Assembly (NCBI GenBank): GCA_017535635.1 | Contig: JAFXTU010000059.1 | Coordinates: 1-64,000, forward strand | Source of the DNA: Oscillospiraceae bacterium | GTDB lineage: Bacteria; Bacillota; Clostridia; Oscillospirales; Oscillospiraceae | Length of the DNA stretch: 64,000 bases | Direction: 5' to 3' | Shown here: piece after piece, positions 53,866-59,467 of the stretch | Layout: each line of letters starts with the position of its first letter | Position numbering within the stretch: position 1 is the stretch's first letter | Position numbers and translations under genes: made by a program | Notes under the pieces: model-generated | What the model was told of the DNA's origin: nothing | The model's input: only the letters and a program-made list of their open reading frames with translations | The model's database searches: none

Positions 53866-56800
53866 TCAGCTCTGGGGCTCCTCCCATTCCGGCTTCACCG
53901 GCACATGCTCCACGTCGACGGTCACACCCTCCGGCAGGAGAATGGTCATCGCCAGTCCGGGATCGTCATCCGGCCCGGCGGCAAACCACGCTTCTCCGGC
54001 CTTCTTCGACAGGTGCGTTTTCTCCTCTCCATCGACATGGTATTCATCTTCGTGATACATCCACTGGCTGTCCACATACAGATCATAGAGTACAGAATCG
54101 TCGTCGATCCCGATGTATACGCAGGGCTCCTCGGTATACTCCCTGACGCCGAAAATATGAGGATCGATCCGGTATCCGTTCACGCTCACCCAGGTGGAGA
54201 CATAATCGTTCCCGGAGGGTCCGGCAAAGGCCAAATCGCTCCCGAGGACCCGGATCACGGCATTCTTCGCCTCCACGATCTCGATCCCGCAGCCCCACTG
54301 CATGTACTCTCCGTCGTTATGAGACCGGAGCTCCGCGGGATTGCTGCCCAGCGCCACCCGCGTGGGGGCCCACATGTCAGAGATGCTGATGACTTCCACC
54401 GCGGAGGCGTCCAACTCCGTGATGTCCACACTGCCCTGCATGATGCGCAGTTCGTTGTAAGCCGGCATGACCCCGCAGAGCTTCACGGGAGTCTCACCTG
54501 CGTCGGCGTCGATCTGGAGGACGCTCCAGTTTCTCCCCAGCTCCCCGTTGAACTCATCCCAGGTCCTCAGGTTGAACCCGTCATCGTACCCGGACGAAAC
54601 GTCGACGGAGGTGCTGCCCACCGTCAGGGCCGAAGCGCTGTTGTAAGCCCTGAGCCATGCGCCGGGCTGGTTGTTCAGTTCACCGTTCACCTCCAGCCGT
54701 GCTGCCTCATTGCTGCCCGCCGAGCCGAGGGTGATGCTCTGGTTATTATCCAGGCTGTTTACCCGCAGGACACCTTCTACGGTGATATCCCCGTCGTTCC
54801 ACAGATGGCCTCCCAGGGTGAGGGCAGCTCCATGCTCCACGATCAGGCCGCTGCCCGGCTCGATGTTCATATCCATGAGCATGGACACGTTCTCCGTCAC
54901 GGTGATGGCGCAGTCCTCCCGGATATACACCCGGTGGAAGGGAGGATCGGAAGAGAGCGCAGCCGTCTTCAGTCCGGCAAGTGTGCGGGCCTCAAAGGCG
55001 CTGACCGCGTTGTCCGGGGCGCCCGTCACAGGGCAGTCCTCGGGACGGAATATGCTCCCGTCGTAGACCATCTCCCAGTTTTCCTCATCAAAGACACCGC
55101 CCTCGTGATACCGCACCTCAAAGACGCCGTCGTTTTCCACGGTGCCGGTGCAGGCGAAGCTGCCGTAGCTCCAGATCTCCACCAGACCGTGATCGATATG
55201 GGGAATGCCCTGCTCCCAGTCCTCTTCCTGCTCGCTCTGGATCACCAGCGTACCCCGGACGTCCAGCTTATTGGGAACAAAGAATTCCATCCTGTCCTCC
55301 ATGCCGTTCACCCGAAGCGCGTTATCCCGCGCCACGGTCAGGGTGACGCCCTCGGGAACGGTCAGGACGGTACCGACCGCGGTATAACCCAGGTGAGCGC
55401 CTTCCGCTCCCGCTTCCGCCTCGACCCAGTCCTGGAGCGCCTCGTCCCAGCGATACCACCTTTCCTCTTCATGGTTCTGGAGCCAGTAATCGCGGAAAGA
55501 ACCCAGGGTCAGGTCTTCGGTCAGGGTGATGTCCCCGCAGATGTCCATCCGATTGTAGCGGTTGTCGCAGGAAACGCTGTCGTCCTCAAAGGCTGCGATC
55601 CTTCTGAGCTGCTCCGCCTCGGCGGCCTTCATGCCCGCAAGGTCGAAGACCTGCGCCGCATAGTCGCACCAGTGGGAGTCGTTCTGTTTCTGATTCCAGG
55701 TGGTAAAGAAATCCTCGAAGCCGCTCAGGTCGCAGGGGTTGTAGTCCGCTCCGTACTGGTCCGTGATGCGCAGATATCCCTCGTTCAGGAACTCGCCGCC
55801 GCTGGGGACCGTGATGCTGCCGCCCCGGATATCCAGGCCGGAGGAGTTATAAGTGACCAGCTTGCCTGGAGAGGCCTGCGTATAGTCCGTATCCGAAAGG
55901 TCCAGACTGCCGTTGTTGACGAGACTGCCCCGGTTCACCAGACTGCCGCCCCGCATCGCCAGCATGGCCCAGGAGCCGTTGTCGGTCTCACCCACACCGG
56001 TGATCGCGTCGTTGTTCAGCGTACCGGCGACCGTAACGGAAGTATCTTCGCAGAAAATAATGCTTCGGTTGTTGAAGGTCGCTCCCGCTTCCAGGGTGAG
56101 GACGGCGCCCGAGAGGTTGAGATCCCCGAGATTCTCGACCGTGCCTCCCAGGAACCGGACGCTGCCGTTGAGCGAGGAATTCCCGTCCAGGATAACGCTG
56201 CCGCTGCTCTCCAGGCTGCCTCCGGCGTCCAGGAAGGAATCCGTAAATCTCAGGGACGCCCCCGCTTCCACTGCAATGTTCATGGAGATATAGCTGTCGA
56301 TCAGCTCCAGGCTCACGCCGGAGGGAACGGTGAGGGTATAGGTATTCCCGAACGCCTCCTGATCGATCGGCCCCAGGATGGCCAGCGCGAGAACGTCGCT
56401 GCGGTTGACCCGGATGTCTGTCCCGAAGGAAGTGACTCCGTTGCCTCCCTCAAAGCGAAGACCCCGGACCCCTTCCGGGTCCTCCGGAGCATCGCCGATG
56501 AGCTGAACGGCGCAGTCCCGGCTGAAGCCGTAGGATCCATCGTTCAGATAAAGCGCTCCTTCGGGCGCCTGTACGATGAGCTTGGCCGGGGTCCGGAAGC
56601 GGCCATCTCCCAGCGCGGCTGCCTCCGCAAGACTGCTGTTGTTTCCGCTCAGGGTCAGCGTCCCCAGCACCCGCAGGGAATGACCGGCAGGAAGATTCAG
56701 ATTCTCCAGGCTGTCCGCCCCGGTGAGCTCGATGCGGGGGTAGAATTCCCAGATCTCTCCCTCGTCCTCGTCCCGATAGAGATGCTTTTCCGCCTCGGCC

Positions 56801-58293
56801 ATAGCCTCTTCCAGGGTGGAGAAGCTGAGATGCGCTCCGCCTTCCTCTTCACTCAGGACCACAGTATACAGCGTTTCCTCCGGTTCCGGCGGGGAATCGC
56901 CGGAGTCGTCGTCAGGATCATCGACGCCGCTGCCGCTGCCTGTGTCTCCTCCGGAGGAAGCGGTCTCCTCCTCCAGCTGTTTGGTGAGGACGGTCTCCCC
57001 CGCCTCCACTGCTTGTCCGTTCTGCGAAACGCCCTGCGCGCCTTCCTCCACGGTGAGGGAGGTGCCCGCGGTGTTCACCTGGGTATTGCCGCCGGAAACC
57101 TGGGCGACATCCACCTTCCCTTCGCCGGAGACCACCACGCTCTCCGCCTGGGATTCCAACGCGGCGACCTTTGCGGACTCGTCCACCGAAAGCGTCGCGC
57201 CCTCGGCCTTTTCCGCCACAAGGACGGCGCTGACCTCGGTTTCGCCCCGGAGGCGCACATCCGCCCCCTCCGCCTTCACCGTAAGGCCCACCGCCTGAAC
57301 ATCCTCCAGGATGACCGGGGCATCGGTATCAATGACGATCTGATTGAATTCGCCGTCCAGAATAATGACGTCGCTCCCATCGTCGATGTAGACCGCCTCA
57401 ATGCGGCAGCCCTCCTCGGTGCGGAGGCGGACGCCGCCGTCCCCGGTCTTGCCGATGCGGGCGCTGCCCACGGTGGAATTGTTTTTCAGAATGATGGAAT
57501 GGTCGCCGCCGCCCCGGATCACCAGGCGGCCGGTGACCTCCGTACCGTCCAGCACGACCTCGCCGGAGCCCACGCCCTCTCCCAGGAGCAGATCGCCGCG
57601 GATCTTCATATCCTTCAGCGTCACGCCGGGGACGTTCACCATCACGTTCCCCTCCGCGTCGGCAGAGTATTCCCCGCTGCTGCTCACATAGGTCTTCAGA
57701 AGGTTGAAAAAGACCTGGGCAAAGGCTTCCCGGGAGATGTTCGCCTTGGGCTCCAGACCGGCCTGGGTGCCCTGGATGTATCCGCCCTCCACAAGGGCAG
57801 CCAGGGGCCCCCGGGCATAGCCGGAGATCTCATCCGCATCCGGGAACTTTTCTAACATTGTCTCGTCCCCGTCTTCCAGAAGGAAGGCCCGGGCGATCAC
57901 CGTAAAGGCCTGCTCCCGGGTGATGGGGGCATCCGGCTCCATCAGGCCGCTGCCGTTTCCCCGGAAGGTGCCCATACGCAAAGCCTTGGCCAGCTCCGGC
58001 ACATACCACGCACCGGCCTGAATATCCCGGAAACCGCCGAGATCCGCCGTATCCTCTGCGCCAAAGGCCCGGTTCACGATCGCCGCCATCTGCGCCCTGG
58101 TCAGCGTCCCCTTCGGGTCCAGCCGTCCGTCCTCTGTGCCTCGCAGCAGACCGTTGTCCACAGCCGCCTGAAGGGCGGCGTAGGACCAATGGTCCTTTTC
58201 CGGCATGTCCGGGAACTCCGGCGCCGCCGAAGCGACGGAAACCAGAGAACAGAGCATGACCAGGCATAAAAGAATGCTGAGCGTTTTCCGCAT
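53866..58293 (-). CDS. Giant secreted SLH-domain surface protein
   Basis: 1475 residues. Signal peptide (about 1-23, ending VSVASAA), three N-terminal SLH repeats (about 27-200: FPDMPEKDHWSYAALQAA, FRDIQAGAWYVPELAKAL, FPDADEISGYARGPLAAL), then a beta-helix-like region (about 215-420) with short repeated turns (VVLDGTEVTGRLVIRGG, VIILDGEFNQIVID), an Asp/Ser/Gly-rich spacer (about 450-480), and a second, longer right-handed beta-helix-like part built of GTL/GSL turns (ESSGSVILDGNSSLNGSV, GGSLVNRGSLVNNGSLDL). The exported protein should bind cell-wall polymer. It has only a few Cys residues. No enzymatic motif seen; adhesin or S-layer-associated protein likely. Confidence 0.88.
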   Translation of the reverse strand: MRKTLSILLCLVMLCSLVSVASAAPEFPDMPEKDHWSYAALQAAVDNGLLRGTEDGRLDPKGTLTRAQMAAIVNRAFGAEDTADLGGFRDIQAGAWYVPELAKALRMGTFRGNGSGLMEPDAPITREQAFTVIARAFLLEDGDETMLEKFPDADEISGYARGPLAALVEGGYIQGTQAGLEPKANISREAFAQVFFNLLKTYVSSSGEYSADAEGNVMVNVPGVTLKDMKIRGDLLLGEGVGSGEVVLDGTEVTGRLVIRGGGDHSIILKNNSTVGSARIGKTGDGGVRLRTEEGCRIEAVYIDDGSDVIILDGEFNQIVIDTDAPVILEDVQAVGLTVKAEGADVRLRGETEVSAVLVAEKAEGATLSVDESAKVAALESQAESVVVSGEGKVDVAQVSGGNTQVNTAGTSLTVEEGAQGVSQNGQAVEAGETVLTKQLEEETASSGGDTGSGSGVDDPDDDSGDSPPEPEETLYTVVLSEEEGGAHLSFSTLEEAMAEAEKHLYRDEDEGEIWEFYPRIELTGADSLENLNLPAGHSLRVLGTLTLSGNNSSLAEAAALGDGRFRTPAKLIVQAPEGALYLNDGSYGFSRDCAVQLIGDAPEDPEGVRGLRFEGGNGVTSFGTDIRVNRSDVLALAILGPIDQEAFGNTYTLTVPSGVSLELIDSYISMNIAVEAGASLRFTDSFLDAGGSLESSGSVILDGNSSLNGSVRFLGGTVENLGDLNLSGAVLTLEAGATFNNRSIIFCEDTSVTVAGTLNNDAITGVGETDNGSWAMLAMRGGSLVNRGSLVNNGSLDLSDTDYTQASPGKLVTYNSSGLDIRGGSITVPSGGEFLNEGYLRITDQYGADYNPCDLSGFEDFFTTWNQKQNDSHWCDYAAQVFDLAGMKAAEAEQLRRIAAFEDDSVSCDNRYNRMDICGDITLTEDLTLGSFRDYWLQNHEEERWYRWDEALQDWVEAEAGAEGAHLGYTAVGTVLTVPEGVTLTVARDNALRVNGMEDRMEFFVPNKLDVRGTLVIQSEQEEDWEQGIPHIDHGLVEIWSYGSFACTGTVENDGVFEVRYHEGGVFDEENWEMVYDGSIFRPEDCPVTGAPDNAVSAFEARTLAGLKTAALSSDPPFHRVYIREDCAITVTENVSMLMDMNIEPGSGLIVEHGAALTLGGHLWNDGDITVEGVLRVNSLDNNQSITLGSAGSNEAARLEVNGELNNQPGAWLRAYNSASALTVGSTSVDVSSGYDDGFNLRTWDEFNGELGRNWSVLQIDADAGETPVKLCGVMPAYNELRIMQGSVDITELDASAVEVISISDMWAPTRVALGSNPAELRSHNDGEYMQWGCGIEIVEAKNAVIRVLGSDLAFAGPSGNDYVSTWVSVNGYRIDPHIFGVREYTEEPCVYIGIDDDSVLYDLYVDSQWMYHEDEYHVDGEEKTHLSKKAGEAWFAAGPDDDPGLAMTILLPEGVTVDVEHVPVKPEWEEPQS

Positions 58294-58495: not shown

Positions 58496-59314
58496 TCACA
58501 CAGTCTCTGTATCCACTTCCTTCTCCGCGCTTCTGCCGTTTTCCGGCCAGAGGAACGAGTTCTTTTTCATCTGGCGCTCAACTTCCAGGTCTTTTTCTTT
58601 CTCCTGCTCCGCCTTCCGCTCCTCCAGCCAGGCTTCGTAGTCCAGGTCCTCCATAAGCCCGTAGGCGGCGCAGTCCTCCGCCGGGAAGATCTGCTCTTTC
58701 GCGCCCAAAGCGGCGAAAACGATCCGCCAGTTCTCCTGCTCCCCCGTGTGGAAGGGCAACTCGAACACCCGCAAAAGCCCGGTCCCGTCCCGCTTGCTGA
58801 GGACTGGGCGAAGGCGGCTTTCCTCCAGAGAAAAGGTCAGCCGTTCCTCCCAGGCCTCCTCTTCCGTCTCAAAGCCGTCCAGGCCGTAAAGCACAGCCTT
58901 GGACACAACGGAGCCGCGCATGCTCAAATCCTTGATACCGCCGGTCATGGCAAAGCGGAACAGATAATCGGTGCTCTTTTCCAGCTTTTTCTCGCAGACG
59001 ATCCGGGTCCCCATGCTGTAGGTGTCCCCGATCTCCCAGGCTTCCACGGTGTTTCCCAGCGCGGTGGTCAGAAAGACCCGCTCCCCGAAGCCACCGGAAA
59101 GGGATTTATCCATTTTGAATTCTCTTGCGTTAAAATCAATGACATTACTCATATTCCGTTCCTCCGCAGAATGATATGCAGCCGGAGCGTGAGTATTCAA
59201 AAGCCGTATTTCCCGGTCGCCGATATACTCAGCCCGACCGTTTTTGACCAGCCCCTTCGCCCGTTTCGGGTAGGTGCTGCCGATTTGCTTCCCCTCGGCG
59301 TCCGTTACGATCAC
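58496..59314 (-). CDS. Protein with IscB PLMP-like N-terminal motif, function unknown
   Basis: 272 residues from a GTG at 59314. Residues 1-40 read IVTDAEGKQIGSTYPKRAK followed by GLVKNGRAEYIGDREIRLL. The pattern (short beta strand, GK, a P preceding (K/R)RA(K/R), L(V/L)KxGRA, IRL) resembles the N-terminal PLMP domain of IscB/IsrB proteins. No RuvC or HNH motif follows. The middle (about 60-230) is unassigned, and the C-terminus is a charged coiled coil (about 228-272). The start is uncertain: no ribosome site precedes the GTG, and the frame stays open upstream through the leader without an ATG. Homologous N-termini are, to my knowledge, frequent on uncharacterised Clostridial proteins. Confidence 0.6.
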   Translation of the reverse strand: MIVTDAEGKQIGSTYPKRAKGLVKNGRAEYIGDREIRLLNTHAPAAYHSAEERNMSNVIDFNAREFKMDKSLSGGFGERVFLTTALGNTVEAWEIGDTYSMGTRIVCEKKLEKSTDYLFRFAMTGGIKDLSMRGSVVSKAVLYGLDGFETEEEAWEERLTFSLEESRLRPVLSKRDGTGLLRVFELPFHTGEQENWRIVFAALGAKEQIFPAEDCAAYGLMEDLDYEAWLEERKAEQEKEKDLEVERQMKKNSFLWPENGRSAEKEVDTETV

Positions 59315-59423
59315 GTTTTTTTCTATGGGTGCCGCCCCCTTGATAACTCCGCGAGGGATGATAATGCGTGACTTCCGTTTTTTCTCATGGGTGTCGTCCC
59401 CGGGGCGGTTGCCGCCCGGTCAC
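59315..59423 (-). promoter_or_regulatory. Structured leader with a small upstream ORF and a direct repeat
   Basis: About 108-nt 5' UTR. It opens with a GC hairpin (ccgggcgg, CAA loop, ccgccccgg), then an ORF of 21 codons from ATG 59388 to TAG at 59325-59323, with GGGGA about 10 nt before it; its stop lies 8 nt before the GTG of the next gene. Two imperfect copies of CACCCAT-(G)AGAAAAAACG occur, about 60 nt apart (around 59391-59374 and 59330-59315). Confidence 0.5.
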
Positions 59424-59429
59424 ATTAAT

Positions 59430-59458
59430 ATATTAGCATAAACAGCTGTTTCTGTCAA
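59430..59458 (-). promoter_or_regulatory. Promoter for the PLMP-like protein gene
   Basis: Minus strand consensus TTGACA (59453-59458), 17-bp spacer, TAATAT (59430-59435). Confidence 0.75.
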
Positions 59459-59467
59459 TTAAAACAC

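What the first reader, a model, noticed from the sequence alone, without database searches (positions are those of the whole stretch)
58496..59460. PLMP-like domain protein behind a structured leader with its own small ORF
The N-terminus resembles the PLMP domain of IscB, the RNA-guided Cas9 ancestor, but without RuvC or HNH. A consensus promoter makes a leader of about 108 nt with a GC hairpin, a 21-codon ORF ending 8 nt before the GTG start, and two copies of a CACCCAT-AGAAAAAACG element. No ribosome site serves the main start. Translation control through the leader, or an RNA partner for the PLMP-like domain, is possible. This is the least explained locus in the window.
Basis: partly seen in the sequence, partly recalled or inferred. 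Interest (0 to 1): 0.6.

Follow-up and report, generated by a model that had tools for sequence, protein, structure and literature searches.

The report
IscB-type domain with tandem leader RNA
In many gut Clostridia, a small domain known from the RNA-guided nuclease IscB sits, without any nuclease, on an otherwise unstudied gene whose messenger RNA begins with a repeated folded element that contains the gene's own start site, which suggests that the protein controls its own production by binding its RNA.

Summary
The locus is real and part of a large family. The gene lies on the minus strand. Its first ~45 residues have the PLMP fold of IscB/IsrB: profile match to real IscB N-termini, and the nine best structural matches in the PDB are IscB/IsrB. 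There is no RuvC, HNH or omega RNA. The rest is a lectin-like beta-sandwich, replaced by unrelated helical parts in relatives.

The two leader repeats are a structured RNA absent from Rfam: a covarying outer stem around GGGGAnGRCACCCAUAACAAAAAAC. Two, sometimes three, copies precede nearly every relative examined. RNA and domain co-occur almost perfectly.

A second ribosome site, GGAGG-8 nt-ATG, is conserved between the two domains in 104 of 110 loci although the amino acids differ, so a short product without PLMP is expected.

Best reading: the PLMP-like domain binds its own tandem leader and controls the first start site. This matches IsrB, whose PLMP domain holds two terminal hairpins carrying the Shine-Dalgarno sequence. 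Binding itself is untested. The 21-codon ORF is not conserved.

The parts
59430..59458 (-). promoter-like site TTGACA-17-TAATAT
   Evidence: 10 of 12; 2 sites found in the region against a shuffle mean of 0.4; a promoter-like site lies upstream of the first copy in 62 of 100 loci against 16 in one shuffle
59368..59423 (-). first copy of the leader RNA element: outer stem GUGAC/GUCAC (59423-59419 with 59372-59368), an inserted GC hairpin (59417-59403), core GGGG..CACCC..AAAAAAC (59401-59377)
   Evidence: (34.3 bits, E 1.8e-6); covariation of the outer stem in relatives
59323..59388 (-).
   Evidence: AUG at this place in 6 of 104 first copies
59299..59348 (-). second copy of the element; holds the Shine-Dalgarno-like G run (59339-59335) and the start codon
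   Evidence: 28.8 bits, E 5.2e-5; profile over 103 last copies
59324..59326 (-). likely start codon AUA of the long product
   Evidence: AUN in frame at this place in 106 of 110 loci; no ATG/GTG/TTG in frame upstream in the window
59201..59326 (-). PLMP-like domain (beta-beta-alpha-beta-beta)
59161..59165 (-). internal Shine-Dalgarno sequence GGAGG
   Evidence: GGAGG in 104 of 110 loci, in eight different codon contexts
58496..59152 (-). short product from the internal ATG (MSNVIDFNAREF..): beta-sandwich and C-terminal helix, stop codon included
58496..59326 (-). whole coding region of the long product, stop codon included

Best explanation
A chromosomal gene family of Clostridia in which a stand-alone PLMP-type domain (known from IscB/IsrB) is encoded directly behind a tandem structured leader RNA. 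SHOWN by sequence and model: PLMP fold; tandem covarying RNA elements beginning close to the predicted transcription start; the last copy contains the Shine-Dalgarno sequence and the start codon of the PLMP part; a second, strong ribosome site and ATG precede the C-terminal domain; RNA and domain occur together. INFERRED: the PLMP-like domain of the long product binds the tandem elements of its own mRNA, stabilises the hairpin that buries the Shine-Dalgarno sequence and the AUN start codon, and so limits its own synthesis, while the internal start makes the C-terminal (in the window lectin-like) protein without that control. The locus thus sets the ratio of an RNA-binding long form to a short form by autogenous control of translation.
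For: PLMP: hhalign of 46 N-domains against 11 IscB N-termini gives 93.8%, E 1.7e-7, score 34.4 against a maximum of 18.1 in 200 column shuffles; 35 of 46 members touch Pfam RRXRR, below its cut-off; Foldseek hits 1-6 and the nine best by VIA-align (Z 7.5-5.5, next 3.6) are IscB/IsrB PLMP domains. RNA: outer stem of at least 4 bp in 55 of 72 non-redundant first copies against a mean of 23.5 and maximum of 34 in 500 flank swaps; first copies stand in all three frames relative to the last copy (36/35/33 of 104), so their conservation is not coding. Link: of 50 PLMP-positive genomes I count among the handles covered, 49 have the element by model and the 50th by eye. Start sites; internal site. The beta-sandwich part has 8 strong matches in 197 genomes, all at PLMP loci. 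[quoted passage not shown] in IscB the PLMP domain recognises the terminal hairpins (PMC9640706).
Against: No binding, expression or ribosome data. The window leader is not more stable than shuffles (z 0.10). The element does not resemble omega RNA: HEARO is found at 10 of 10 IscB loci tested but not in the window or the ten PLMP loci searched, and model R1 finds nothing in 23 IscB or IF3 loci; so the IsrB parallel is one of arrangement, not of RNA sequence. In 35 of 52 non-AUG loci another ATG/GTG/TTG stands in frame within 120 nt, often ATG in the hairpin loop 9 nt upstream, so the exact start is open for those. One degenerate element copy lies before a lipoprotein-like ORF instead. The wide conservation of both could also come from one inherited gene rather than from binding.
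Confidence: 0.5

Rival explanations
1. The tandem element is a ligand-sensing (riboswitch-like) or trans-factor-sensing control region; the PLMP-like domain has another role. Tandem copies give a steeper response, and the last copy hides the ribosome site.
For: Short conserved core with a variable covarying outer stem, tandem copies and an overlap with the start site are typical of such regions. The GGG/CCC hairpin followed by an A-rich strand recalls preQ1-I, and the ACGR-like loop recalls guanidine-II (recalled from memory).
Against: The element is nearly confined to this one gene: 51 of 295 genomes were hit, and the off-locus hits are one degenerate copy and two chance-like matches. Metabolite switches usually serve several transport or enzyme genes. 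No Rfam family matched the ten loci over these positions at E up to 1.
Confidence: 0.22
2. The PLMP part is mainly a translated leader: ribosomes starting at the weak AUA/AUC/AUG site set the access of others to the strong internal GGAGG-ATG site, and the non-AUG codons make it respond to initiation stringency (IF3). The PLMP fold, related to the N-domain of IF3, would be incidental or contribute.
For: Non-AUG start position in 52 of 106 loci; the internal site is the most uniform feature (104 of 110); in L003/L079 (one contig fetched twice) the PLMP ORF is separate from the next ORF.
Against: The PLMP segment is under protein-level constraint (9150 synonymous against 5223 replacement codon differences over pairs, mostly third-position changes; invariant residues), and AUG is the commonest start. 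The IF3 relation is weak (hhalign 14.5%, score 19.2 against a shuffle maximum of 20.2).
Confidence: 0.13
3. The leader is released or kept as a stable RNA that forms a ribonucleoprotein with the long product, a remnant of an OMEGA-type particle without guide or nuclease, with a function beyond its own expression.
For: PLMP homology and fold; tandem hairpins directly upstream of the ORF as in IsrB; near-perfect co-occurrence.
Against: No resemblance of the RNA to HEARO; the elements are short and overlap the coding start.
Confidence: 0.12

Closest known systems
PLMP domain of IscB/IsrB (N-terminal part of Pfam PF14239 RRXRR)
   Same: Fold, spacing of conserved residues (G, P, basic-A-basic, L, G, A), position directly behind an RNA with paired hairpins and the Shine-Dalgarno sequence.
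   Different: No PLMP motif proper (IGxTYP in its place), no RuvC/bridge helix/HNH, fused to lectin-like or helical parts, no omega RNA, below the Pfam cut-off.
[quoted passage not shown]
   Same: Same small alpha/beta topology; published as structurally similar to PLMP (PMC9581776, passages); appears in fold searches behind IscB.
   Different: Profile similarity is within the range of shuffles; no IF3 C-domain; the window's genome has its own IF3.
Autogenous leader control of translation (as in ribosomal-protein and infC genes; recalled)
   Same: Structured leader over the ribosome site of the gene for a nucleic-acid-binding fold.
   Different: Tandem repeated element, PLMP-type domain, internal second start; binding not shown.
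preQ1-I and guanidine-II riboswitches (recalled)
   Same: GGG/CCC hairpin plus A-rich strand; tandem hairpins with an ANGR loop.
   Different: An outer covarying stem encloses the whole core; no Rfam match at E up to 1 over these positions; associated with one gene only.

Membership tests
IscB/IsrB OMEGA nucleases | N-terminal PLMP domain | tested here: met
   hhalign 93.8%, E 1.7e-7; nine best PDB chains are IscB/IsrB; the four-letter PLMP motif itself is absent
IscB/IsrB OMEGA nucleases | RuvC domain with bridge helix (and HNH in IscB) | tested here: not met
   no Pfam match at E up to 0.1 for the 275-aa protein; AlphaFold2 model, pLDDT 90.6, shows a beta-sandwich and one long helix after the N-domain
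IscB/IsrB OMEGA nucleases | omega RNA (Rfam HEARO) upstream | tested here: not met
   none in the window or in ten PLMP loci; found at 10 of 10 IscB loci as control
Pfam PF14239 RRXRR | score over the curated cut-off of 25 bits | tested here: not met
   window 12.5 bits, E 0.14; 35 of 46 members listed, best E 0.0057
IF3 | IF3 N-domain sequence profile | tested here: inconclusive
   hhalign 14.5%, score 19.2, shuffle maximum 20.2
known Rfam RNA family | match at the gathering score | tested here: not met
   0 matches in the 64-kb window; in ten PLMP loci no listed match lies on the leader elements at E up to 1
autogenously regulated leader | conserved RNA structure over the ribosome site | tested here: met
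autogenously regulated leader | the gene product binds the leader | not testable with these tools
   needs binding and reporter experiments

The most novel reading that the evidence does not exclude
A domesticated, nuclease-free OMEGA-type module: the PLMP domain, set free from IscB-like proteins (or their forerunner), kept its habit of gripping paired hairpins that carry the gene's own Shine-Dalgarno sequence and now works as a general RNA-binding control or RNP domain attached to changing payloads, with its own previously undescribed tandem RNA partner, across gut Clostridia.
Probability: 0.3. Interest if true: 0.85.

Novelty: new variant of a known kind. Interest (0 to 1): 0.7.

Why it matters
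PLMP is among the least understood domains of the Cas9 ancestors. A nuclease-free family with one copy per genome, present in cultured species (Ruminococcus albus, R. bicirculans), would let one test what PLMP does with RNA by itself and whether control of its own ribosome site came before RNA-guided DNA cutting. It also adds a structured RNA class that is absent from Rfam 15, a set of genes that appear to start at AUA or AUC, and a conserved dual-start layout.

Tried and rejected
Programmed frameshift from the 21-codon ORF into the main frame through A-AAA-AAC: rejected, because AUG is present in 6 of 104 first copies and the first copies stand in all three frames. Sequencing error at the A run: not needed once the AUN start was seen in relatives. 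Coding explanation of the first copy: rejected on the same frame counts. Known RNA families: none. NCBIfam and PDB by sequence: nothing for the domain; the two PDB rows are chance. PF14239 in 147 order genomes: none over the cut-off. Viral contigs: 9 patterns, no relative. Plasmids: none. Two 'Bacteriophage sp.' records carry the locus but look like bacterial contigs. Gene neighbourhood of 11 relatives: no neighbour shared by eye from ORF starts, no profile search done. CRISPR-like repeat and mobile-element readings were dropped without a dedicated test.

Papers: PMC9581776, PMC9640706 and PMC2864571 seen as passages; PMC8040213 searched for four words, none found; other papers only as search listings. 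That a PLMP domain outside IscB/IsrB or this RNA is in print was not found in the searches and 101 of an open-licence library; most papers of subscription journals and the bioRxiv preprints are outside it.

Full report
What is in the window. The gene runs on the minus strand. The listed frame is GTG 59314 to stop 58496, 272 codons, and the frame stays open upstream without ATG, GTG or TTG. A promoter-like TTGACA-17-TAATAT lies at 59458-59430. The leader holds a GC hairpin and two copies of a GGGG..CACCCAU..AAAAAAC element. The minimum-energy fold forms GUGAC/GUCAC around the first copy, with the GC hairpin inserted, and a stem around the second, but its energy is no better than shuffles (z 0.10).

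The family. The protein's first 45 residues, not the rest, are shared widely. A profile of seven sequences (A1) matched 62 of 394 genomes of the order at E up to 1e-4, usually once per genome. In a scan of GTDB species genomes 397 stretches matched a pattern and 354 encoded a relative; the best 80 were kept, and their titles name Lachnospiraceae, Ruminococcus (including R. albus and R. bicirculans), Oscillospiraceae and other Clostridia. No match was found in plasmids and no confirmed one in viral contigs. The two 'phage' records with the locus look like bacterial contigs.

The RNA element. A strict pattern found at least one copy in 115 of 116 loci: two in 101, three in 5, one in 9, none in 1. 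L029, the one without, has diverged copies; L099 seems to have a single copy. Over 102 first and 103 last copies, GGGG, a G in the loop, ACCC, AU and AAAAAAC are almost invariant. Around this core lies a stem of variable sequence. In 72 non-redundant first copies, a stem of at least 4 bp at the expected place occurs in 55, against a mean of 23.5 and a maximum of 34 in 500 swaps of 3' flanks between loci. For stems of at least 5 bp it is 41 against 11.7 (maximum 20). In last copies it is 42 of 54 against 30.1 (maximum 36). On 33 selected copies 9 of 11 pairs show changes on both sides, and the register shifted by one to three columns does worse (these copies were chosen for having a stem). RNAalifold on the same alignment predicts only the inner GGG/CCC pairs, a result against the outer stem as a fixed consensus helix. 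L035 and G220 change GGG/CCC to GAG/CUC. First copies stand in all three frames relative to the last copy, 36/35/33 of 104, so their conservation is at the RNA level. A promoter-like site precedes the first copy in 62 of 100 loci, with a median of 13 nt from the -10 box to GGGG (16 of 100 in one shuffled control), so the first stem begins near the mRNA's 5' end.

Element and domain go together. A covariance model (R1) hit 51 of 295 genomes of the order. Forty-nine of these are PLMP-positive. Among the handles covered I count 50 PLMP-positive genomes; the one missed by the model, G220, has the element by eye. I inferred the overlap of the two genome samples from the handles; the tool does not state it. 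The other two hits, G151 and G299, look like chance, and G047 has a degenerate extra copy before a lipoprotein-like ORF. No Rfam family matches: 0 in the window at gathering scores, and among 9 weak or unrelated matches in ten loci none lies on the elements. HEARO, the IscB-associated RNA, is found at 10 of 10 IscB loci as a control, and R1 finds nothing in 23 IscB or IF3 loci.

Start sites. After removing duplicates, 109 of 110 loci carry a strict last copy; in 106 the AUN of CCC-AUN is in frame with the domain: AUG 54, AUA 30, AUC 22. In three (L084, L087, L088) both copies lie wholly upstream of an ordinary ATG. AUU, seen in 11 of 104 first copies, is not seen among the 100 last copies counted. 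For the 52 non-AUG loci, 17, the window included, have no ATG, GTG or TTG in frame within 120 nt upstream; 34 have one without, and one with, a Shine-Dalgarno-like word. So AUA is the best start call for the window (59326-59324), with the G run at 59339-59335 as ribosome site.

A second start. Between the two domains, an ATG with a match of at least five bases to the Shine-Dalgarno sequence upstream was found in 111 of 116 loci. GGAGG is present in 104 of 110, in eight codon contexts (ACG 48, TTG 23, TCG 14, ATG 10, AAG 5, CAG 2, GCG 1, GTG 1). ACG is 23% of Thr codons, TTG 11% of Leu and TCG 13% of Ser in the same genes. So the nucleotides rather than the residues are conserved, and a short product is expected. 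In the window GGAGG is 59165-59161 and ATG 59152. In L003/L079 (one contig fetched twice) the PLMP ORF ends by itself after 65 residues and the next ORF has its own site.

What the domains are. The window protein models with mean pLDDT 90.6: beta-beta-alpha-beta-beta in residues 4-41, a low-confidence linker, a beta-sandwich and a C-terminal helix. The N-domain alone (pLDDT 85.8) matches IscB and IsrB PLMP domains first: Foldseek ranks 1-6, E 0.031 to 0.27, TM up to 0.78; VIA-align Z 7.5 to 5.5 for nine chains, next IF3 at 3.6. By sequence, 35 of 46 members touch RRXRR, below its cut-off; 23 of 46 touch Diacid_rec as well, with a better best E-value (0.00018), a result against reading the Pfam hit alone. 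Profile-profile comparison with 11 IscB N-termini from this phylum gives 93.8% and E 1.7e-7, well outside 200 shuffles. IF3 is marginal. The beta-sandwich resembles carbohydrate-binding and Eph-type jelly rolls; its 8 strong matches in 197 genomes are all at PLMP loci, while 7 weak ones lie in other proteins of three further genomes. Other relatives carry unrelated, probably helical C-terminal parts.

How it may work. [quoted passage not shown] in IscB the terminal hairpins are recognised by PLMP (PMC9640706, passages). Here a PLMP-type domain is encoded directly behind tandem hairpins of which the last holds the Shine-Dalgarno sequence and start codon. The simplest reading is that the domain binds its own leader and shuts its own start site, while the internal site makes the rest of the protein. 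Binding, repression and the role of the short form are inference. A ligand-sensing element, a ribosome-sensing leader and a stable RNP remain open, as scored.

Noticed in passing
G047:C41:8836-8883 (L159): A degenerate single copy of the element with a promoter stands before a lipoprotein-like ORF, the only off-locus copy that looked real.
   Followed up: partly
L115:1415-1485 and 1527-1618: Gut-1 RNA copies near a PLMP locus, one over and one just below the Rfam gathering score.
   Followed up: no
MT838929.1 (L220), MT836355.1 (L221): Records labelled Bacteriophage sp. carry this locus beside ORFs also seen beside R. bicirculans or of bacterial type; they look like bacterial contigs.
   Followed up: partly
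L188 near 1498: An IscB gene whose frame begins, by eye, at a non-AUG codon (ATA or ATT) behind AGGAGG.
   Followed up: no
G637:C1:54683-54844; G611:C12:7-153: Short RRXRR/PLMP open frames of 64-74 aa, fragments or further stand-alone PLMP proteins.
   Followed up: no
window 53866-58293, minus strand: A 1475-codon ORF next to the locus with a signal-like start and repeated beta-like sequence; by eye a surface-layer type protein.
   Followed up: no
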